From Candidatus Krumholzibacteriota bacterium (GTDB lineage Bacteria; Krumholzibacteriota; Krumholzibacteriia; JAJRXK01): DNA of 64,000 nucleotides. The notes below the pieces were generated by a model, which had not been told where the DNA came from, did no database searches, and saw nothing but the letters and a program-made list of their open reading frames with translations. Location of the stretch: positions 1 through 64,000 of the forward strand of contig JAJRXK010000051.1 of assembly GCA_024276305.1 (NCBI GenBank), read 5' to 3'. A program made the translations under genes and the position numbers. How positions within the stretch are numbered: the first letter of the stretch is position 1; each line of letters starts with the position of its first letter. Below, one piece after another: positions 1 through 17,353 of this stretch.

Positions 1-410
<410 letters not shown>

Positions 411-536
411 TTCTGATTTTTCCTCTTCGGAGGACAAGTCGAGAGTCTTCAGGTTCTGTCATGTCTGCTTACCCAATTGCGGTTGTCAAAGAATGATTCT
501 TGCGGATGAGATCTCGGATCTCGCCAGATTGACTTG
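411..536 (+). other. 23S-5S internal transcribed spacer
   Basis: This spacer of about 125 nt holds no tRNA. It begins with a T-rich run and then a perfect hairpin TCCTC-TTCG-GAGGA (421-434) with a UUCG tetraloop. An AAGAAT/ATTCTT inverted repeat follows near 490-502. Both are plausible rRNA-processing structures, which is inference. No protein gene is supported here. Confidence 0.8.
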
Positions 537-651
<115 letters not shown>

Positions 652-660
652 TCCTTGAAA

Positions 661-8912: not shown

Positions 8913-9569
8913 TCAACGCACGGCGGTTCGCTTGGGATCGCCATCTCTCGATACCAACAAGATCGCCACTCCCGCGGCCGCGGCTGCGAGCCAGAACTTG
9001 GGCGACCGAATCGTCGCTCCGGCCAGATTGGGCTCGTGCAGCAATACGCTCTCGACTTCGGCCAACTCGAGTTGGGTCGCATTCTCCCAGTCTTCGTTCT
9101 GGGTCAGGAGAAGGTAGAGCCCGGTGGGATCGAGACGGGCTTGGCTTGGGGGCTCGTCGAGTCGGTAGGTCTGACCGTCCTTCATCACGATCCGCTCAAG
9201 GGGGGGGAGAGTGACGAAAGATCTCAGATCCTCGGGAGTACGGACCTTGGTCCAGTGCAGGCGATCGGCGTCATCCCTCCACTCGATGCCCTCGACCTGA
9301 GCCAGGGACCAGATGGCGGTTCCGAACCGCGATCCGGAGGCGCGGAGGCTGTCCTTGCGCAGACTGAGGGTCTCCTGGCTGGTCAGCGTATAGCTACTGC
9401 CGTCCTCGAAGAGGATCTTCGTCGCGCGGGCGAGGGGGATCGTGGCCCCATCGGCATCCACCGGGGTTCGACTGTAGAGGAGAGGTTGGGCGGAGCAGCC
9501 GATGAAGGCCCCAGCCAGGCCCAGACTCAGCCACAGCGCGGCCGTGCGCAGGTGTGAGATCGAGAGCAT
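8913..9569 (-). CDS. Hypothetical lipoprotein with C-terminal membrane segment
   Basis: I do not recognise a family. The 218-residue product has a signal sequence ending in a lipobox-like FIGC (Cys25). A beta-rich middle (repeated short segments such as ILFEDGSSYTL and IVMKDGQTYRL that look like paired strands of one repeat unit) follows, and then a C-terminal hydrophobic segment (FWLAAAAAGVAILLV) with a short basic tail. The two FEDGSSY/MKDGQTY segments hint at an internal duplication. It is convergent with thiS and divergent from the operon starting at 9694. Confidence 0.75.
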   Translation of the reverse strand: MLSISHLRTAALWLSLGLAGAFIGCSAQPLLYSRTPVDADGATIPLARATKILFEDGSSYTLTSQETLSLRKDSLRASGSRFGTAIWSLAQVEGIEWRDDADRLHWTKVRTPEDLRSFVTLPPLERIVMKDGQTYRLDEPPSQARLDPTGLYLLLTQNEDWENATQLELAEVESVLLHEPNLAGATIRSPKFWLAAAAAGVAILLVSRDGDPKRTAVR

Positions 9570-9636
9570 GGTGCAATCCCCCGAGGAGTGATGGACGCGA
9601 AGTCGGTCCGCTTCATATTGGAGTCGTCGGCTCTCG

Positions 9637-9665
9637 TTTACAAGGGGGGCTCCTTGGTCTAGCCT
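9637..9665 (+). promoter_or_regulatory. candidate promoter of the 9694-16415 operon
   Basis: TTTACA (9637-9642), a 17-nt spacer and TAGCCT (9660-9665) lie about 30 bp before the first start codon. It is followed by a T-rich leader and a strong ribosome site GGAGGTGA. It is the only promoter-like sequence I find for the seven-gene chain, whose members overlap or touch. Confidence 0.45.
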
Positions 9666-9693
9666 CGTTTTTTTCCGATCCGGAGGTGATGGG

Positions 9694-9942
9694 TTGTCCT
9701 TGATCCTGGCTCAGGCGATCCTGGTGGGGGCCGCGCTCTACCTCGCGCTCGGAGGCTTCTTCCTCGTCGGAGTTCTCCTCGGGAGGATGGGGCCGAGGGT
9801 CGGGACCGAGGTGAGCTGGGGGGCTCGTCTCCTCCTGGCGCCGGGGATGGTCATGGTCTGGCCGCTCTTGTGGCGACGCCGGCCCGGAGATCCTCCGCCG
9901 ACCGAGTCGACGGCCCATCGAAGGTCCGAGGCCCGCCGATGA
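9694..9942 (+). CDS. Small integral membrane protein, first gene of lipid/redox operon
   Basis: An 82-residue protein with a TTG start supported by the strong ribosome site GGAGGTGA (9682-9689). It has two hydrophobic segments (LILAQAILVGAALYLALGGF continuing into LVGVLLGR, and LLLAPGMVMVWPLLW) and a short basic cytoplasmic-type tail. I recognise no family. Its stop overlaps the next start (ATGA), so the two are probably translated together. It may be an accessory subunit of the membrane redox protein two genes downstream, which is inference from context only. Confidence 0.75.
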   Translation: MSLILAQAILVGAALYLALGGFFLVGVLLGRMGPRVGTEVSWGARLLLAPGMVMVWPLLWRRRPGDPPPTESTAHRRSEARR

Positions 9943-10436
9943 TCGCGGCCCTGCGTCGCGGCCACCGCAGGGCGGTGGTGGTGGGGTGGATGGTGCTGCC
10001 CCCTCTGGTGCTTCTGGCTTTCTTCGCACGCCCAGTTCCCCTCCGGTCGGTGCTCCCGTCGACATTGATCGAATCCTCCCCGGACCCGAGCCAGGAGTGG
10101 TTCCACTCTTCCGGACTCTTCGAAGAAGTGCCGCTCGACACGAAGATCTCCACGACCACCGATGGCGTCTCGGTGTTGAGCCTGCGGGCCAGGTCGCCAT
10201 TGTCCTTCCCCCAGCTCCTGGTCTACTGGCGGCCGGAGCTTGCCCCTGGGTCCGAAAGCTCCTCGGTGGAGGGTGCCGATCTTCTCGGAATCCTCTCGGG
10301 CCGGGGGGCGCATCGTCTGCTGTTTCCTTCACTGTGGAAGGGAGGGGGGCAGGTGATCCTCTACAGTGTGGGACGCGCGGAGGTGGTGGCGAGTTCATCG
10401 GTGCTTCCGTTCCCCGCACCGGAGGGCCGTCCGTGA
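9939..10436 (+). CDS. Membrane-anchored hypothetical protein
   Basis: This 165-residue protein has a basic N-terminus (LRRGHRR), one TM/uncleaved signal segment (VVVGWMVLPPLVLLAFFA) and a ~125-residue domain predicted outside the cytoplasm. No family is recognised. It is coupled to both neighbours by 4-bp overlaps (ATGA at 9939, GTGA at 10433). Its position directly before the ferric-reductase/Rieske fusion suggests a partner or electron-acceptor-facing subunit, but nothing in its own sequence (no Cys pair, no CxxCH) shows cofactor binding. Confidence 0.7.
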   Translation: MIAALRRGHRRAVVVGWMVLPPLVLLAFFARPVPLRSVLPSTLIESSPDPSQEWFHSSGLFEEVPLDTKISTTTDGVSVLSLRARSPLSFPQLLVYWRPELAPGSESSSVEGADLLGILSGRGAHRLLFPSLWKGGGQVILYSVGRAEVVASSSVLPFPAPEGRP

Positions 10437-11464
10437 CCCACACCTACGTGGCCGTGCAGTGGAATCGACAGAAGCGTCGCTACGACCTGGCGGTCTTGGT
10501 CGCGCTTCTGTCCACACTGGGGGCCTTCGTGGCCCTGGGGAAGTGGGTGCGTCCGCATGCGACGGCAGAGACTCTTCTGATTCGAGGCACCGCGGTGAGC
10601 GCTTGGGCGCTGCTCCATCTGATCCTGAGTCTCGGCCCCTTGTCTCGTCTGGATTCGCGGTGGTTGATTCTGCTCTACAATCGCCGCCACTTGGGAGTCA
10701 CCTTCTTCCTCGTCTGTTCCGCACACGCCGCATTGAGCCTGATGCAATTCCATGGCTTCGGGGACATGAATCCGTTGTTGAGTCTGCTCAGTTCCAATGG
10801 ACGATTCACGAGTCTGACGAATCATCCCTTCCAGCTTCTCGGTGCGGGTGCATGGATCATCTTTCTGTTCATGGCGGTCACCAGTCATGATTTCTGGCTG
10901 GCTCATCTCACCGCGCCGGTTTGGAAGGCGCTCCACATGGGGATCTACCTGGCCTATGCTCTGGTCCTCGGCCATGTCGCTCTGGGGTCGGGACAGAGTC
11001 AGAGTGGGGTCGTGTTGGCGATGGCCGGTGGGGGTGCGTTATGGATTCTGTCGCTCCACTCCTTGGCCGCACTCCGAGAACACCAGGTCGATCGCAGGGC
11101 CCGCGGGCAGCAGAATCGAGACGGCTGGATCGAAGTCCCCTCCCCTCAAGACATCGTGGAGGGGCGCGCGCGGCTGGTCGAAGTGGCCGGCGAACGGGTC
11201 GCGGTATACCGGCGGGGAGAAGAGTATTGGGCCCTTTCGAATGTATGCCAGCATCAGAACGGTCCGCTCGGCGAAGGCTGCATCCTCGAGGGGAAGGTGA
11301 CCTGCCCGTGGCATGGATTCCAGTACGACCCCACCACTGGTGCAGCGCCGCCTCCCTACACCGAGAGGGTGCCGACCTTCGATCTTCGATGGGAAGGCCA
11401 TCGGCTCTACCTTTCGACCGTCGCCCGCCCCGCTCCGTCGCTGTCCACCACCGGAGGACGATGA
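10433..11464 (+). CDS. Ferric-reductase-like transmembrane cytochrome b fused to a Rieske [2Fe-2S] domain
   Basis: A 343-residue fusion. Residues ~15-225 form about six TM helices of the ferric-reductase/MsrQ type with His residues placed for heme b (in ALLHLIL, CSAHAAL, KALHMGIY and VLGHVAL). Residues ~240-335 are a Rieske domain with both ligand pairs present: C272-H274 (CQH) and C291-H294 (CPWH). This is the layout of a membrane electron carrier passing electrons between a heme pair and an iron-sulfur centre. Known relatives of the TM part include MsrQ, which feeds MsrP from the quinone pool. The start is a GTG overlapping the previous stop. There is no MsrP or oxygenase gene beside it; acyltransferases follow instead. 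The substrate is unknown. Confidence 0.88.
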   Translation: MTHTYVAVQWNRQKRRYDLAVLVALLSTLGAFVALGKWVRPHATAETLLIRGTAVSAWALLHLILSLGPLSRLDSRWLILLYNRRHLGVTFFLVCSAHAALSLMQFHGFGDMNPLLSLLSSNGRFTSLTNHPFQLLGAGAWIIFLFMAVTSHDFWLAHLTAPVWKALHMGIYLAYALVLGHVALGSGQSQSGVVLAMAGGGALWILSLHSLAALREHQVDRRARGQQNRDGWIEVPSPQDIVEGRARLVEVAGERVAVYRRGEEYWALSNVCQHQNGPLGEGCILEGKVTCPWHGFQYDPTTGAAPPPYTERVPTFDLRWEGHRLYLSTVARPAPSLSTTGGR

Positions 11465-11465
11465 G

Positions 11466-12218
11466 TTGAGCGGCGACCCGGAGTTCTACGTTGGCCATGC
11501 CGACTCCGTATCGCCGGTCCTCGGGCGCGCGGCGATTCGGCGATGGGCCGCCGTGATGGGGGTGGTGATCTCGGTGGCCCTCGTCTTCGCCGTTGCTCAA
11601 GAGGATCTGCCTCCGAAGTACTTCGAATGGGACCGGGTCCGTTCCTTCGAGGGTCGCATTCGACTGGAGCCGACCCCTCATCTGATGGTCGACCTTCCCA
11701 GCTCGGACCACTCGGTCCGTTTGGCCCTGGTGGGTCCGCGAAAGTCGGGGGCGCGGAGCTTCGTCGAGGAATTCGACGGAGAGCGGGTCCGACTGGATGC
11801 GCACCTCCTCTATCGGGATGGTCGGACCATGGCCGAAGTGGTGCCGGAGTCGGTCCACCGCCTCGGTCGCGGGGCCTCCGATCCGGTGGACTCGGGTCTC
11901 TCCCTGGGCCCGGTGTCTCTCGAGGGCGAGATCGTCGACACCAAATGCTTTCTGGGAGCCATGAATCCGGGGCGGTCCAAGGTGCACCGGGCTTGTGCGG
12001 TGCGGTGCATCTCGGGGGGAATCCCGCCTGCGCTCTGGGTGCGTGGTCAGGACGGGGGTGCGGTGGTATTGTTGGTGGATTCCGAGGGTCGGTCGGTGAA
12101 CGACCGAGTCCTGGGGATGGTGGCGGAGGGAGTGCGAATTCGAGGGGAGCTTTGGCGCTACGATGATCTATTGGTGCTACGCAGTGATCCGGAAGACTAT
12201 CAAAGGTTGAGTCGATGA
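11466..12218 (+). CDS. Membrane-anchored protein with conserved Cys-rich motif, unknown function
   Basis: The 250-residue protein has a single N-terminal TM segment (WAAVMGVVISVALVFAVAQ) and a beta-rich exported part. Near residues 158-190 it has a dense motif with three cysteines (C161, C177, C181), H174, M166 and a GGIPP end, spaced C-x15-C-x3-C. I have the impression of a conserved uncharacterised family but cannot name it. The residues would suit metal or heme/FeS-linked chemistry, which is inference. The start TTG (11466) is chosen for GGAGG at 11453-11457; the ATG at 11461 is out of frame and stops at once. It overlaps olsB by 4 bp. Confidence 0.7.
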   Translation: MSGDPEFYVGHADSVSPVLGRAAIRRWAAVMGVVISVALVFAVAQEDLPPKYFEWDRVRSFEGRIRLEPTPHLMVDLPSSDHSVRLALVGPRKSGARSFVEEFDGERVRLDAHLLYRDGRTMAEVVPESVHRLGRGASDPVDSGLSLGPVSLEGEIVDTKCFLGAMNPGRSKVHRACAVRCISGGIPPALWVRGQDGGAVVLLVDSEGRSVNDRVLGMVAEGVRIRGELWRYDDLLVLRSDPEDYQRLSR

Positions 12219-13057
12219 ACGAGGAAACCCACGCGCCGCTCGTCGGGGCGCTCCAGGACTTGGACTATCCGCAGATGCCCGAATCCCTTCCCCGGTGGGA
12301 GTCGGAAGATGCGAAGTATCGCTGTCGCTTCGCCGCCTCCATCGGCGACTTGGAAGCCGTCCTGCGCTTGCGCTATCGGGTGTTCAACCTCGAGCTGAAC
12401 GAAGGACTCGAGGAGTCTCACCGGTTGGGAATCGACATCGATCGTTTCGATCCGCAGTGTCATCACCTGATGGTCGAGCACCGGGCCACCGGTGAGGTCA
12501 TCGGCACCTATCGTCTTCAGACCCATGCCATGGCGGTCCGAGCCGAGGGCTTCTACTCCGCCAACGAATTCCAATTCGAGATGTGGCCCCCGGGGATCCT
12601 CGAACACGCCACCGAGTGCGGGAGGGCTTGCATCGAGGAGCACCATCGGCACCGGAGCGTTCTTCTCTTGCTCTGGAAGGGATTGGGGGCCTATGTGGTC
12701 CACAACCAGCATCGATACTTCTTCGGATGCTGTTCGCTGACCAGTCAGGATCCCGCGGAGGCCGCCCGAACTCTGGAGTACCTCCGGCAGAAGGGACACC
12801 TGCACCGCGATCTCGACCTGGATCCCCGTCCCGACTACGACTGCTGCGAGGGGCAGCATTCGATCGAAGGGTGGGAATCGGTTCGGCTTCCCACCCTGTT
12901 CCGGACCTATCTGCGTTACGGTGCCCGAATCGTGGGCCGGCCGGCCTTGGACCGAGAGTTTCGCACCATCGATTTTCTGGCCCTGATGGACCTCCAGGAG
13001 CTCGATCCGGTCCGAGTCCTCCGGCAGTTCCAGGTCGATCTCCACCAGCAGACATGA
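12215..13057 (+). CDS. olsB: OlsB-like N-acyltransferase (ornithine lipid-type, GNAT superfamily)
   Basis: OlsB transfers a 3-hydroxyacyl chain to the alpha-amino group of ornithine, the first step of ornithine lipid synthesis. The 280-residue product has the family landmarks: LRLRYRVFN near residue 50, GEVIGTYRL, GFYSANEF, ECGRACIE, and LLLLWKGLGAYVV followed by RYFFGCCSL. The next gene is a PlsC-type acyltransferase, the expected partner (OlsA). The amino acid used cannot be told from sequence; related PF13444 enzymes acylate other amino acids. The start ATG overlaps the upstream stop (ATGA), as does its own stop with the next gene. Confidence 0.82.
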   Translation: MNEETHAPLVGALQDLDYPQMPESLPRWESEDAKYRCRFAASIGDLEAVLRLRYRVFNLELNEGLEESHRLGIDIDRFDPQCHHLMVEHRATGEVIGTYRLQTHAMAVRAEGFYSANEFQFEMWPPGILEHATECGRACIEEHHRHRSVLLLLWKGLGAYVVHNQHRYFFGCCSLTSQDPAEAARTLEYLRQKGHLHRDLDLDPRPDYDCCEGQHSIEGWESVRLPTLFRTYLRYGARIVGRPALDREFRTIDFLALMDLQELDPVRVLRQFQVDLHQQT

Positions 13058-13854
13058 TCGTTCGCTTCCGCGCCGCGACGAGAGCCGTGGTTCTGGCGCT
13101 CTTCTTGGGGGCGTGGTTCCTCCTCTATTGGATGGGGCGGTTGTTCTGTTGGAACTCCCGGTCCCGGCGGTGGTGGAGGCGCCACTACATGCAAGACGGT
13201 GCGCGGATCACCTTGCATCTGCTGGGAGCCCGAGTCGCAGTTCGAGGCCGTGCCCCCGACCGCGCCTGCATCGTGGTCTGCAACCACTTGGGCTATGTCG
13301 ATGTGATCGTCCTGGCCAGTGTGGCCAGAGTGGTCTTCGTATCCCGGGCCGACGTGGAGTCGTGGCCGGGCGTGGGTCCGCTGACCAAGAGCGCGGGCAC
13401 GATATTCCTGGATCGGCAGCGCAGTCGCTCGATTCCCCGAGCTCTCGACAGGATGCGGCGAGCGGTCTCGGACGGGAGCGGAGTGGTATTCTTCCCCGAA
13501 GGAACCAGCAGCGACGGTCGAGATCTCTTGCCTTTTCGGTCCTCCCTCTTTCAGGTGGCCATCGAGATGGGCGTGCCGGTCTGCTGCGCCGCCTTGGCCT
13601 ATCGCACTCCGGCGGGCGAGAGGTCCCCCGAGGAGGCGGTGGCGTGGTGGCAGGATGACCTCGACTTCTTTCCCCATTGTTGGCGTCTGCTCTCGCTCTC
13701 TTCCTTCGAAGCTCGGGTGAGCTTCACCGAGGGTCGGATCGAAGTGTCGGAATCCACGGATCGGCGAAGTCTCTGTACCGAGGCCGAAGGTCGAGTTCGA
13801 CGGGCCCTCCAAGATCTGAAGGCCGATGTGCCGAATGAAGGCGTCGCACGATGA
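13054..13854 (+). CDS. PlsC-type acyltransferase, candidate lyso-ornithine lipid acyltransferase (OlsA role)
   Basis: The 266-residue membrane-associated acyltransferase has an N-terminal hydrophobic segment (VVLALFLGAWFLLYWMGRLF), the catalytic HX4D motif (NHLGYVD) and the FPEGTSS motif. The family transfers a fatty acyl chain to a hydroxyl, as in 1-acylglycerol-3-phosphate or lyso-ornithine lipid. Placement immediately after the OlsB-like gene with a 4-bp overlap supports the OlsA role, but a phosphatidic-acid role cannot be excluded from sequence. The stop again overlaps the next start. Confidence 0.88.
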   Translation: MIVRFRAATRAVVLALFLGAWFLLYWMGRLFCWNSRSRRWWRRHYMQDGARITLHLLGARVAVRGRAPDRACIVVCNHLGYVDVIVLASVARVVFVSRADVESWPGVGPLTKSAGTIFLDRQRSRSIPRALDRMRRAVSDGSGVVFFPEGTSSDGRDLLPFRSSLFQVAIEMGVPVCCAALAYRTPAGERSPEEAVAWWQDDLDFFPHCWRLLSLSSFEARVSFTEGRIEVSESTDRRSLCTEAEGRVRRALQDLKADVPNEGVAR

Positions 13855-16415
13855 AGACCCGAGGGAAGTGGTGGAAGAGGAAGCGGTGGATCTGGGGGAT
13901 CTATTTGCTTCTCCTCGGGCTGCACCAGTGGGGAGGGTTCTCGGACCTGCGAGGTCACGATTCGCCACGCGGTCTTGGAGTCCAGGTGCCGCGCGCGGAG
14001 GGCAGCCGCGACCGTGTCGAAGTTCGCATCACCGAGGACGGGGCCGCGGATGCGCCGGTGCTGCTCTTGGTGGCCTTCGATTCCGACACCGACTCGGAGC
14101 TGGATGCGCAATTGAGGGCGCTGGTTCGGGACCACCGAATTCGGATCTGGCAGGTCGATCTTCGGGCCCTGGCCCAGGAGGTTTCGCCCCCGAGTTTCGA
14201 GGGTCTGGCGTCCCGACTGCGAGCGGTGGTGGAGGCGGAGGGCTCTCCTCCTCTGTCCATGGTGGCGACCGCCGACGCGGCGGCGGTCGCGATCCACTGC
14301 GCATCGGAGCTCGACCCCGCGCCGCAGGCTCTGGTGCTCTGGGGTGGAAGCGGGGTTCAGGAATTCGATCTTCTGGGCAGCCATGAGCTCAACCATGTTC
14401 TCTACTCCCTGCAGTGGGTGTTGCTGACGGCATCGAACGAGCTTCTGCCACACTTCGGAGCCTTGCCATTCTTGGCCCACGCCGCCCAGAACGCACGCAT
14501 CCGCATGCAGAGCGACCGTCGCCTGCTGCGCGACGCCATCCGCCGGTTGGGAATGCCGGTCCTCATCGTCCATCGCGCCCGCGATCCTCATGTCGGAGTG
14601 GCGGTGGCGCGGGAGCACGCCCGCTTGATCCCGCAGGCTCGACTCCAGGTCCTCGGGCCGGGAAGTACGGCTCCTTCGCTCGGTGAGTGGTTGGACGAGG
14701 CGAGGCGAGGCGAAATCCCCCGACGCTCCGACGCCACCGCGGAACGGATCGAGGCTTCTCGGGCCGAGCTGGGTCGCGGAGAGTGGGTCCAAGCCCATGG
14801 TCGAACTCTTGGACTGCTGATCTTTCTTCTGGTCCTGGGCACCTTCATCACCGAAGACCTCACCTCCATCGCCGCGGGGTTGCTCATCGCCGATGGACGA
14901 CTGACCTGGGCGCAGGGCCTGGGTGCGGTCTTCTGCGGGATCTATTTCGGTGACCAGTCCTTGTATTTGATCGGACGCATCGCACGCCGCAACATCGTGC
15001 ACCGGCGACCGTGGAAGTGGGTGCTGCGAGGAGAGGATCTCGACCGGGCGGCTCGGTGGTTCGAAGAGAAGGGGCTGGTCGCCATCCTGCTCACTCGGTT
15101 CATTCCGGGAACGAGATTGCCGACCTATGTCGCGGCCGGAGTGGTTCGGGCTGGCTATTGGCGTTTCGCAGCCTACTTCTTCGTGGCGGTCGCGCTGTGG
15201 ACTCCTCTTCTCGTGGGCTTCTCCGCGCAGGTCGGAGGAGAGGCTCTCGCGCGTCTGCAGGGCTTTCGGCGGGGATCCCTCTTGGTCCTTGCGGTCGTCG
15301 CCTTGGTGATCCTGGTCTGTCTGCGCCTCCTCCTTCCGCTGTTCACCGACCGAGGCCGTCGAGAACTCTGGGCTCGGTGGCAACGGTGGACTCGGTGGGA
15401 GTTCTGGCCGCCGGCAATGATCTACGGCCCGGTCTTGGTTCGAATCCTGGGCTTCGCATGGCGCCATCGGAGCCTTCGGGTGGTCACCGCCGTCAATCCG
15501 GGGATCGCGGCGGGCGGACTGATGGGCGAATCGAAGTTGGCCATCCTCGACGCCCTCGGGGGAGAGGGAGAACACGTCCCTCCTTACCAACGGATTCCTC
15601 CCGGGGATGCTCGATCCCAGCGAGAGGTTGCGGAGGCTTTCCTGAGTCGTGCGGATGTGGGACTGCCCATCGTCATCAAACCGGATTCCGGCGAACGCGG
15701 ACAGGGAGTCGTCGTGGTGCGGCGGCTCGAGCAGCTCGATGAAGTTCTCCGGGGTTCGGGGACGGCGTGGATTGCCCAGCGTTACGTGGAGGGGCTCGAG
15801 TTCGGCATCTTCTATCTGAGGGAGCCGGGAGAGTCGGCCGGTCGGATCTTCAGCATGAATTCCAAGGAGCGATTGTGTTTGCGCGGCGATGGCATCCACG
15901 ACCTCGAACACCTCGTTCTCCACGATCCACGGGCATCCATTCTGGCGAAGATCCACCTTCGGGCCAACGTGGATCGCTTGGGATCCATTCCCGCCGAGGG
16001 CGAGGAGGTGGAGATCGTGGAGATCGGAGCGCATGCCCGCGGGACGGTGTTCCGCGACGCGCGGGATCTGGTGACTCCAGAGCTCACGCGGGCCATCGAT
16101 CGTCTCTCCCGGAGATTCTCCGGATTCCATTTCGGGCGCTATGACGTGCGCGTCCCCGACGTCGAGGCTCTGCGCGAAGGTCGAGACTTTCAGGTTCTCG
16201 AACTCAATGGCCTCACCTCCGAGGCCGCGCACATCTACGAGCCCGGCTTTTCGCTGCGAGAAGCTCGACGGACGCTGACCGAGCAGTGGCGTCTGGCCTT
16301 CGAGATCGGAGCCGCGAATGCCGCAGAGGGCCACCGCCCTTCCACTTGGCGTGAGCTCCTGGATCTGTGGTCGCAATATCGAGAGGCGGCTCGTCAGAGG
16401 CCGCCGGCCCACTGA
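13851..16415 (+). CDS. Three-part fusion: alpha/beta-hydrolase-like domain, DedA/VTT membrane domain, ATP-grasp ligase domain
   Basis: An 854-residue protein. Residue ~12 onward is a TM anchor. Residues ~50-300 look like an alpha/beta hydrolase fold (VLLLVAF strand, VLIVHRARDPHV acid-loop strand), but the nucleophile-elbow region (around residues 137-146, VATADAAAV) has no GxSxG serine, so this part is probably non-catalytic. Residues ~320-500 are a DedA/VTT domain with LTRFIPGTRLP, the family's RxxPGxR-type signature. Residues ~525-835 are an ATP-grasp domain: VIKPDSGERGQG as phosphate loop, then RYDVRV and VLELNG supplying the metal ligands. DedA proteins are known lipid flippases and ATP-grasp enzymes join a carboxylate to an amine. 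After the OlsB/PlsC pair this suggests amino-acid modification and flipping of an aminolipid (inference). Confidence 0.85.
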   Translation: MKTRGKWWKRKRWIWGIYLLLLGLHQWGGFSDLRGHDSPRGLGVQVPRAEGSRDRVEVRITEDGAADAPVLLLVAFDSDTDSELDAQLRALVRDHRIRIWQVDLRALAQEVSPPSFEGLASRLRAVVEAEGSPPLSMVATADAAAVAIHCASELDPAPQALVLWGGSGVQEFDLLGSHELNHVLYSLQWVLLTASNELLPHFGALPFLAHAAQNARIRMQSDRRLLRDAIRRLGMPVLIVHRARDPHVGVAVAREHARLIPQARLQVLGPGSTAPSLGEWLDEARRGEIPRRSDATAERIEASRAELGRGEWVQAHGRTLGLLIFLLVLGTFITEDLTSIAAGLLIADGRLTWAQGLGAVFCGIYFGDQSLYLIGRIARRNIVHRRPWKWVLRGEDLDRAARWFEEKGLVAILLTRFIPGTRLPTYVAAGVVRAGYWRFAAYFFVAVALWTPLLVGFSAQVGGEALARLQGFRRGSLLVLAVVALVILVCLRLLLPLFTDRGRRELWARWQRWTRWEFWPPAMIYGPVLVRILGFAWRHRSLRVVTAVNPGIAAGGLMGESKLAILDALGGEGEHVPPYQRIPPGDARSQREVAEAFLSRADVGLPIVIKPDSGERGQGVVVVRRLEQLDEVLRGSGTAWIAQRYVEGLEFGIFYLREPGESAGRIFSMNSKERLCLRGDGIHDLEHLVLHDPRASILAKIHLRANVDRLGSIPAEGEEVEIVEIGAHARGTVFRDARDLVTPELTRAIDRLSRRFSGFHFGRYDVRVPDVEALREGRDFQVLELNGLTSEAAHIYEPGFSLREARRTLTEQWRLAFEIGAANAAEGHRPSTWRELLDLWSQYREAARQRPPAH

Positions 16416-16450
16416 TGCGGTGATCGCCCTGCGCTTCGGAGACCGCTTCC

Positions 16451-17353
16451 TCAGGGTTCGGCGGACTGAAGGGGAATCGGACGGCCCACCCCGTCGAAGA
16501 TGACGTAGTGGTCGGGGTCGTAGCGTCGAAAGGCCACTTTCGAGTGCTCGACGACCTTCTCGAGGAGGCCGTCGAGCTGAGCCATGGCGAAGGTCGCGAT
16601 CCAGCTCTCCGGAATGGATCCTCCCACGTCTGCGCTCACTCGGTAGGCGAGGAGGGTGCGCTCCCGATCGAGGGCGAAGAGAATCCAGGCCCCCCGGTTC
16701 ATGGGGACGTAGACTGCCTTGGCGAGATCCTCCAGCCGGAGGTCCCCTGCTCGGCCTCCGGCCACGGTCGCCCGGGCGATCTCGGGACCGTTGTCGACCA
16801 GATTCCAGCTGTGTTGCCACACGAATCCCTCCGTCCGCCGGGCCAGATCGGAGTCCTTCTGAAGTTCGATCACCCAGTAGCGGTCGGAGACCGGCCAGGG
16901 GAGCGAGATGTACTGGAACCACAGACTCCCTCCTTCCGCATTCTGCCGCAGTCGGACCTCGGTGAGGAGATCACTCCCCTCGAAATCCGGATCCAGAGCG
17001 GCCAGCCAGACATGAGTTCGGGGAGCCTCGACGAGGGAGTAGCCGACCACCTCTTCGCGGTGGCCCTTCTGGCTGTGCTCGCTGGGGAGAGTCTTGCGCA
17101 CTTTGACGATGCGATGGTTGGCGAGACGATCGAGCTGCTCGGAGTCGAGAAAGGGAAGGGGCGTGTCCGCGAAATCGTTGTAGACTTCCAGCGCTGCAGC
17201 GAGGAGTTCGCGGTCTGTGTACTCGTGCTCCTCGGCGAAGGCAGAGACGACCGACCCGACGACGACTGCAACGACGAGCAGCGCCAGAATGCCGCTGCAC
17301 GGCGTCCTTCCTTTTGCTGGGAGCCGGAGACCATTGACCGATCGTGTGCGCAT
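16451..17353 (-). CDS. Exported START/SRPBCC-like domain protein
   Basis: The 300-residue product begins at the ATG at 17353, has a hydrophobic export signal (GILALLVVAVVVGSVVSAFA, cleavage likely after SAFA) and a ~240-residue domain resembling START/SRPBCC lipid-binding folds (alternating strands with YWVIEL, FVWQHSWNLVDNG, and a C-terminal helix FAMAQLDGLLEKVVEHSK). Such domains bind hydrophobic ligands in a deep pocket; none can be named here. Its start region overlaps the 5' end of orn on the other strand by 20 bp, so the two promoters must lie inside each other's genes or start annotations are slightly long. Confidence 0.7.
   Translation of the reverse strand: MRTRSVNGLRLPAKGRTPCSGILALLVVAVVVGSVVSAFAEEHEYTDRELLAAALEVYNDFADTPLPFLDSEQLDRLANHRIVKVRKTLPSEHSQKGHREEVVGYSLVEAPRTHVWLAALDPDFEGSDLLTEVRLRQNAEGGSLWFQYISLPWPVSDRYWVIELQKDSDLARRTEGFVWQHSWNLVDNGPEIARATVAGGRAGDLRLEDLAKAVYVPMNRGAWILFALDRERTLLAYRVSADVGGSIPESWIATFAMAQLDGLLEKVVEHSKVAFRRYDPDHYVIFDGVGRPIPLQSAEP

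What the first reader, a model, noticed from the sequence alone, without database searches (positions are those of the whole stretch)
9694..16415. Seven-gene overlapping operon joining membrane electron transfer to aminolipid synthesis and a DedA/ATP-grasp fusion
Seen: six junctions, five overlapping by 4 bp and one with a 1-bp gap; a single promoter-like site; products in order are small TM protein, anchored protein, ferric-reductase/Rieske fusion, Cys-motif anchored protein, OlsB-like, PlsC-type, and hydrolase-like/DedA/ATP-grasp. Known: OlsB/OlsA make ornithine lipid, DedA proteins flip lipids, ATP-grasp ligases join carboxylates to amines. Inference: the operon makes an acyl-amino-acid lipid, modifies it with a further carboxylate or amino acid, moves it across the membrane, and couples this to quinone-linked redox chemistry. 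I know of no described pathway with this set.
Basis: partly seen in the sequence, partly recalled or inferred. Interest (0 to 1): 0.8.

Follow-up and report, generated by a model that had tools for sequence, protein, structure and literature searches.

The report
Conserved aminolipid operon with redox genes
Seven tightly packed genes, kept together in several unrelated bacterial phyla, probably make an unusual amino-acid-containing membrane lipid, extend or modify it with a ligase fused to a lipid transporter, and tie this to an electron-transfer unit in the membrane; no such pathway is described in the papers searched.

Summary
The seven genes are real and arranged as reported: five 4-bp overlaps and one 1-bp gap. 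The claimed promoter was not recovered. The same order recurs in another Krumholzibacteriota genus, in Acidobacteriota and in Verrucomicrobiota. In 247 Acidobacteriota genomes, 22 of 24 with the YedZ-Rieske gene also carry the ATP-grasp gene, against 3.5 expected; in 241 genomes of the Verrucomicrobiota phylum it is 5 of 5. In several genomes the parts lie at separate loci, which argues for one system. Genes 5 and 6 are nearest to OlsB and OlsA but far below the ornithine-lipid equivalog cut-offs, so the amino acid is unknown. Gene 7 is hydrolase-DedA-ATP-grasp; its ligase domain is nearest to cyanophycin synthetase, GshAB and Ddl. In the window's genus the hydrolase has lost its nucleophile Ser. 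Gene 3 is a YedZ/MsrQ-type haem protein fused to a Rieske ferredoxin; gene 4 is an anchored tandem OB-fold protein with three invariant Cys. The wider module also contains DinB-like and TANGO2 genes, absent from this operon. Best reading: an undescribed variant of aminolipid biosynthesis. Product and redox step are inferred.

The parts
9694..9942 (+). gene 1, small one-TM protein (82 aa, TTG start), no known family
   Evidence: homologue upstream of gene 2/3 in G003 and in Acidobacteriota and Verrucomicrobiota loci
9939..10436 (+). gene 2, N-terminally anchored protein, no known family
   Evidence: homologues in L015, L025, L034, L041, L163, L164, L173
10433..11464 (+). gene 3, YedZ/MsrQ-like six-TM haem domain fused to a C-terminal Rieske [2Fe-2S] domain
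   Evidence: PF01794 38.7 bits, PF00355 61.8 bits; R84, H98, H168, H181 and C272, H274, C291, H294 invariant in 6 of 6
11466..12218 (+). gene 4, one-TM anchor plus two OB-like barrels, the second with three invariant Cys
   Evidence: alignment A9, AF2 pLDDT 81, Foldseek OB-fold hits; no Pfam or NCBIfam family
12215..13057 (+). gene 5, OlsB-like N-acyltransferase (PF13444)
   Evidence: PF13444 3.4e-29; OlsB models 121 and 117 bits, below cut-offs 320/350; only PF13444 protein found in the genome
13054..13854 (+). gene 6, OlsA/PlsC-type O-acyltransferase
   Evidence: PF01553 8.6e-25; OlsA models 143 and 133 bits, below cut-off 300; HX4D (NHLGYVD) and FPEGT motifs
13851..16415 (+). gene 7, fusion: N-terminal TM, hydrolase-like, DedA/VTT and ATP-grasp domains
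14019..14705 (+). degenerate alpha/beta-hydrolase-like domain (approximate limits)
   Evidence: nucleophile elbow ATADAA where most homologues have GFSMGG; His region lost
14859..15227 (+). DedA/VTT domain, residues 337-459
   Evidence: PF09335 57.4 bits; E335/D336 and R416/R422 near-invariant
15363..16412 (+). ATP-grasp ligase region, residues 505-854
   Evidence: profile hits to cyanophycin synthase and GshAB; AF2 pLDDT 93; Foldseek

Best explanation
This is a conserved biosynthetic and transport operon for an uncommon amino-acid-containing membrane lipid. Step 1 (inferred from family): the gene 5 product N-acylates an unidentified amino acid with a 3-hydroxyacyl group. Step 2 (inferred from family): the gene 6 product O-acylates it, giving an OlsB/OlsA-style diacyl aminolipid. 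Step 3 (inferred from fold and linkage): the ATP-grasp domain of gene 7 activates a carboxylate, most simply the free carboxyl of the aminolipid, as an acyl phosphate and joins it to an amine, giving a dipeptide-type or head-group-extended aminolipid. Step 4 (inferred): the fused DedA domain carries the lipid between leaflets. Step 5 (least certain): genes 1-4 form a membrane electron-transfer unit in which a cytosolic Rieske ferredoxin domain passes electrons through a YedZ-type haem b to the anchored, extracytoplasmic, Cys-bearing tandem-OB protein, which would reduce or oxidise something on the outer face, perhaps the exported lipid. Shown here: domain content, conserved residues, gene order across phyla, and genome-level co-occurrence. 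Not shown: any substrate, product, direction of transport or redox partner.
For: Domain assignments. ATP-grasp fold next to peptide-bond-forming ligases. DedA charge pattern kept. OlsB-like genes lie in 28 and PlsC-like in 24 of 53 ATP-grasp loci (52 distinct) from Acidobacteriota, Planctomycetota, Verrucomicrobiota, Rhodothermales and Krumholzibacteriota. Operon-type OlsB and ATP-grasp co-occur in 24 of 25 Acidobacteriota genomes, hypergeometric 2e-23, not corrected for relatedness. Gene 3 and ATP-grasp co-occur in 22 of 24 and 5 of 5. Parts are found at separate loci of one genome: G380, 1.6 Mb apart; G202, with g1-g2-g3-g4-OlsB-PlsC about 550 kb from DinB-TANGO2-DedA-ATP-grasp.
Against: No substrate or product evidence exists. 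OlsB/OlsA equivalog cut-offs are not met. OlsB and PlsC were not seen next to the ATP-grasp in about half of the loci, some truncated. Genes 1-4 are near it in only about a quarter, and three g3-bearing genomes lack it: G509, G529 and the 84%-complete G027. In relatives genes 1-4 also neighbour Rieske-TPP and Rieske-glutamate-synthase-like genes, so their role may be broader. Foldseek TM-scores for the ATP-grasp are only about 0.4-0.56.
Confidence: 0.5

Rival explanations
1. Two systems share one transcript: genes 1-4 are a general membrane redox unit (MsrQ-like, for envelope repair or respiration), and genes 5-7 are the lipid system. They are co-transcribed without a common reaction.
For: Genes 1-4 occur as a block without the lipid genes nearby (L165, L171, L173, L175, L181), and neighbour Rieske-TPP and Rieske-GltS genes. 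G509, G529 and G027 have gene 3 with no ATP-grasp match.
Against: Co-occurrence of gene 3 with ATP-grasp in 22 of 24 and 5 of 5 genomes even when unlinked. Gene blocks are exchanged between the two halves in G202 and G344.
Confidence: 0.3
2. Genes 5-6 make a plain ornithine-type lipid and gene 7 is a transporter-ligase acting on another molecule, such as undecaprenyl-phosphate-linked envelope precursors or a peptide.
For: The DedA domain keeps the acidic and basic tips described for undecaprenyl-phosphate flippases (PMC10127716). ATP-grasp relatives include D-Ala-D-Ala ligase. OlsB/PlsC are not beside the ATP-grasp in about half of the loci.
Against: The UptA equivalog cut-off is not met (48 bits against 250). 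No peptidoglycan genes are among the recurrent neighbours, while acyltransferases are.
Confidence: 0.15
3. The system makes or handles a small N-acyl amino acid or thiol metabolite rather than a bulk membrane lipid. The DinB-like partner recalls thiol-dependent DinB enzymes (own knowledge).
For: DinB-like genes in 37 of 53 loci. PF13444 includes synthases of N-acyl amino acids such as FeeM.
Against: The window operon lacks DinB. A PlsC-type O-acyltransferase and a DedA domain point to a diacyl membrane product. The FeeM match is below its cut-off.
Confidence: 0.05

Closest known systems
Ornithine lipid synthesis, OlsB/OlsA (and glutamine/glycine lipid analogues GluB, GlsB/GlsA)
   Same: Adjacent N-acyltransferase (PF13444) and PlsC-type O-acyltransferase genes; both best match OlsB and OlsA models; two-step aminolipid scheme as reviewed in PMC11631085
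   Different: Far below equivalog cut-offs; joined to a DedA-ATP-grasp ligase, a YedZ-Rieske protein and an OB/Cys protein, none of which was found in the descriptions of those pathways searched here
Flavolipin / Gly-Ser dipeptido-lipids of Bacteroidota
   Same: An N-acyl, O-acyl amino acid carrying a second amino acid on its carboxyl is the product class proposed here (PMC12479983)
   Different: Their second ligation enzyme was not named in the text read; no ATP-grasp, DedA or redox genes were found described with them
Cyanophycin synthetase / GshAB / D-Ala-D-Ala ligase ATP-grasp enzymes
   Same: ATP-grasp fold, Lys, P-loop and Glu/Asn positions
   Different: Soluble enzymes on soluble substrates; here the ligase is fused to a membrane transporter and preceded by a conserved EFWP helix; structural similarity is moderate
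MsrQ/YedZ and FRD-Rieske proteins
   Same: Arg plus three haem His signature; the FRD+Rieske architecture has been noted before (PMC3591440)
   Different: No MsrP-like molybdoenzyme in the operon; the partner is an uncharacterised tandem-OB, Cys-motif anchored protein
DedA COG0586 (undecaprenyl-phosphate flippases)
   Same: VTT domain with the acidic and basic tip residues
   Different: The fusions named for COG0586 in the passages read are rhodanese and PAP2; an ATP-grasp fusion is not mentioned there

Membership tests
Ornithine lipid synthesis (OlsB/OlsA) | OlsB equivalog score (cut-offs 320/350 bits) | tested here: not met
   120.9 and 116.5 bits; relatives 122-137 bits
Ornithine lipid synthesis (OlsB/OlsA) | OlsA equivalog score (cut-off 300 bits) | tested here: not met
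   142.6 and 132.9 bits
Ornithine lipid synthesis (OlsB/OlsA) | Produces ornithine lipid | not testable with these tools
   needs lipidomics
Aminolipid N-/O-acyltransferase pair (broad class) | Adjacent PF13444 and PF01553 proteins with acyltransferase motifs | tested here: met
   PF13444 3.4e-29, PF01553 8.6e-25; HX4D and FPEGT present in gene 6
DedA/VTT family | PF09335 over its cut-off, with reentrant-helix acidic and basic residues | tested here: met
   57.4 bits against 33.9; E335/D336 and R416/R422 near-invariant
Undecaprenyl-phosphate flippase UptA | Equivalog score (cut-offs 250/300 bits) | tested here: not met
   48.2 and 41.7 bits
ATP-grasp superfamily | Fold and nucleotide-binding residues | tested here: met
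   Foldseek E 8e-10, probability 1.0; profile E 2.8e-9 to cyanophycin synthase; K610, E784, N786; but no single Pfam ATP-grasp model reaches its cut-off
alpha/beta-hydrolase (active enzyme) | Ser-Asp-His triad | tested here: not met
   Ser and His lost in the window copy; G001 lacks the Ser; kept in most fused homologues
YedZ/MsrQ family | Arg replacing the first haem His plus three His | tested here: met
   R84, H98, H168, H181 invariant in 6 of 6; criterion from PMC3591440
MsrPQ system | MsrQ equivalog score (cut-off 130) and an MsrP partner in the operon | tested here: not met
   42 bits; no MsrP among the seven genes
Rieske ferredoxin domain | CxH...CxxH ligands and PF00355 over its cut-off | tested here: met
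   61.8 bits against 20.3; C272, H274, C291, H294 invariant

The most novel reading that the evidence does not exclude
A new multi-phylum lipid pathway. An OlsB/OlsA-like pair makes an aminolipid, a membrane-bound DedA-ATP-grasp enzyme adds a second amine through ATP-driven ligation and exports the product in one polypeptide, and a dedicated YedZ-Rieske/OB-Cys electron chain redox-modifies it outside. TANGO2 and DinB homologues would serve the same pathway in other lineages.
Probability: 0.3. Interest if true: 0.8.

Novelty: new variant of a known kind. Interest (0 to 1): 0.62.

Why it matters
If right, it adds a third enzymatic step, a built-in transporter and a redox unit to the two-step aminolipid scheme, in phyla that are common in soil and sediment but poorly cultured. 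It offers a candidate enzyme class for adding a further group to N-acyl amino acids, such as a second amino acid on dipeptide lipids. It also places bacterial homologues of the human disease protein TANGO2 in about half of the ATP-grasp loci examined (27 of 53), often beside acyl-amino-acid genes, which is a testable clue to what that family does.

Tried and rejected
First alignment attempts contained a dummy row (A6) and were redone (A2, A7). A g4 reference with a stop codon was rejected and corrected. The L194 reference gave no family and was probably out of frame; it is disregarded. A defence-system reading (PADLOC) gave no hits. PDB sequence search for gene 4 found nothing useful; Foldseek gave only generic OB-fold hits. 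Whether the Rieske-TPP, Rieske-GltS or PLP enzymes belong to the window system was considered: the Rieske-TPP gene was not found in G000 and the other two were not found in the window, so they are not claimed as parts. TANGO2 was not found in G000 by two searches, though one search missed one divergent TANGO2 that tblastn found in L164, so absence is likely, not certain. DinB absence from the rest of G000 was not tested. Literature searches for DedA, ATP-grasp and ornithine lipid together found no paper describing the set; the library lacks most subscription journals.
Full report
OBSERVATION. Five junctions overlap by 4 bp and one has a 1-bp gap. The sigma-70-type scan gives no promoter-like site in 9400-16700, so that detail is not confirmed. 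The operon lies in contig C34 of a 3.5-Mb draft genome, G000. Its same-family relative G003 corresponds to a record titled Candidatus Krumholzibacteriota (L023), so the window is assigned to that phylum by inference.

CONSERVATION IN NEAR RELATIVES. G003, a different genus of the same family, has all seven genes in the same order, with a DinB-like gene between genes 6 and 7. G001, same genus, keeps only OlsB-PlsC-fusion at this place. The full fusion was not found in other genomes of the class that were searched.

CONSERVATION ACROSS PHYLA. One scan of 84,980 species genomes with the fusion alignment gave 38 loci in Acidobacteriota, Planctomycetota, Verrucomicrobiota, Rhodothermales, Krumholzibacteriota and, as ATP-grasp without DedA, gammaproteobacteria such as Solimonas marina. 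Neighbourhood comparison shows a recurrent module. Of 53 ATP-grasp loci (L020 and L170 appear to be the same record, so 52 distinct), 50 have DedA fused, 37 a DinB-like gene, 28 OlsB-like, 27 TANGO2, 26 the hydrolase domain fused, 24 PlsC-like, 15 gene 4, 13 gene 3, 11 YHS and 11 DoxX. These are lower bounds because many contigs are short. L025 (Verrucomicrobia) has g1-g2-g3-g4-OlsB-PlsC-DinB-TANGO2-DedA-ATP-grasp in a row. L162 and L167 (Acidobacteriota) have the window's order with the hydrolase fused and no DinB or TANGO2; gene 2 was not detected in either.

CO-OCCURRENCE. In 247 Acidobacteriota genomes gene 3 is in 24, ATP-grasp in 36 and both in 22 (hypergeometric 6e-20). Operon-type OlsB (285 bits or more) is in 25, of which 24 also have ATP-grasp (2e-23). 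In 241 genomes of the Verrucomicrobiota phylum gene 3 is in 5, ATP-grasp in 25 and both in 5 (8e-6, or 8e-4 without the two genomes that seeded the search). These values are not corrected for relatedness, and many Acidobacteriota hits look like one clade. More telling are genomes where the parts are unlinked yet both present. G380 has g1-g3-g4 and OlsB-PlsC-DinB-fusion 1.6 Mb apart on one contig. G202 has g1-g2-g3-g4-OlsB-PlsC about 550 kb from DinB-TANGO2-DedA-ATP-grasp. G344 has g1-g3-g4-YHS-DoxX-DinB-TANGO2 on one contig and the fusion on another.

WHAT THE PARTS ARE. Genes 5 and 6 match OlsB and OlsA models best but at less than half of the equivalog cut-offs, and so do their relatives. 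They belong to the aminolipid acyltransferase class with an unknown amino acid. Gene 5 is the only PF13444 protein found in the genome. The ATP-grasp domain gave a confident AF2 model (pLDDT 93). By profile and fold it is nearest to cyanophycin synthetase, GshAB and Ddl, enzymes that join a carboxylate to an amine. Lys610, Glu784 and Asn786 are near-invariant. The DedA domain keeps an acidic pair and two Arg, features associated with proton-driven flippases of the COG0586 subfamily (PMC10127716); the UptA equivalog test is not met. The N-terminal hydrolase domain keeps its Ser in most fused homologues, but the window copy reads ATADAA at the nucleophile elbow and has lost the His region; G001 lacks the Ser too. 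Here it is probably structural or regulatory.

THE REDOX HALF. Gene 3 has the YedZ signature (Arg84 in place of the first haem His; His98, His168 and His181 kept) and a Rieske domain with all four ligands (criteria in PMC3591440, which also shows FRD+Rieske as a known architecture). Gene 4 is a single-anchor protein with two OB-like barrels (pLDDT 81). Its second barrel carries a motif with three invariant Cys, an invariant His and an invariant Met. It matches no Pfam or NCBIfam family and no solved structure by sequence. In relatives genes 1-4 also neighbour Rieske-TPP and Rieske-glutamate-synthase-like fusions. Rieske-TPP was found in 14 of 24 gene-3-bearing Acidobacteriota but not in G000, so the redox unit may have more than one client.

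MECHANISM. Family knowledge and linkage favour N-acylation, O-acylation, ATP-driven ligation and DedA transport of an aminolipid. Shown: domains, residues, synteny, co-occurrence. Inferred: substrate, ligation to the lipid carboxyl, direction of transport, and the redox step. TANGO2 being an acyl-CoA-binding protein in human cells (PMC11867700) fits an acyl-lipid setting for the wider module.

VERDICT. The pathway claim is plausible but unproved. I rate it a new variant of the aminolipid-synthesis kind, interest 0.62.

Noticed in passing
L030:3958-4683, L025:9153-9887, L163:8396-9121, L042:9030-9713 and others: Bacterial TANGO2/NRDE homologues sit next to a DinB-like gene and the DedA-ATP-grasp gene in 27 of 53 loci, often with OlsB/PlsC-like genes; possible functional clue for the TANGO2 family.
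   Followed up: partly
L014:4607-6568 (-), L015:2286-4355 (-), L168:11823-13499, L171:239-2194 (-): Rieske ferredoxin domain fused to a TPP-dependent pyruvate oxidase/acetolactate-synthase-like enzyme, adjacent to the cluster in several relatives and found in 14 of 24 gene-3-bearing Acidobacteriota genomes.
   Followed up: partly
L164:11338-13017, L168:10171-11835, L171:2199-3404 (-), L175:6988-8721 (-), L177:2955-4625: Rieske domain fused to a glutamate-synthase-like FMN domain (PF01645) beside genes 1-4.
   Followed up: partly
L015:1126-2286, L014:3447-4586: Cys/Met-metabolism PLP enzyme (methionine gamma-lyase-like) next to the Rieske-TPP gene in both Krumholzibacteriota relatives; not found in the window.
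   Followed up: partly
window 14019-14705: Hydrolase domain inside the fusion has lost Ser and His in the window copy and Ser in G001, while most other fused homologues keep GxSxG: pseudoenzyme drift in one genus.
   Followed up: yes
window 1-652: The window starts with the 3' end of a 23S rRNA gene and a 5S rRNA gene.
   Followed up: no
L051:8078-12040 (Solimonas marina): Hydrolase, DinB-like, stand-alone ATP-grasp, YHS and DoxX genes in a row in a cultured gammaproteobacterium; a practical test organism.
   Followed up: partly
window 11925-12008 (gene 4, second OB domain): Motif GEIVDxKCxLGxMxPGxxKxHxACAxxC in an anchored OB-fold protein that matched no Pfam or NCBIfam family; metal or redox role unknown.
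   Followed up: partly
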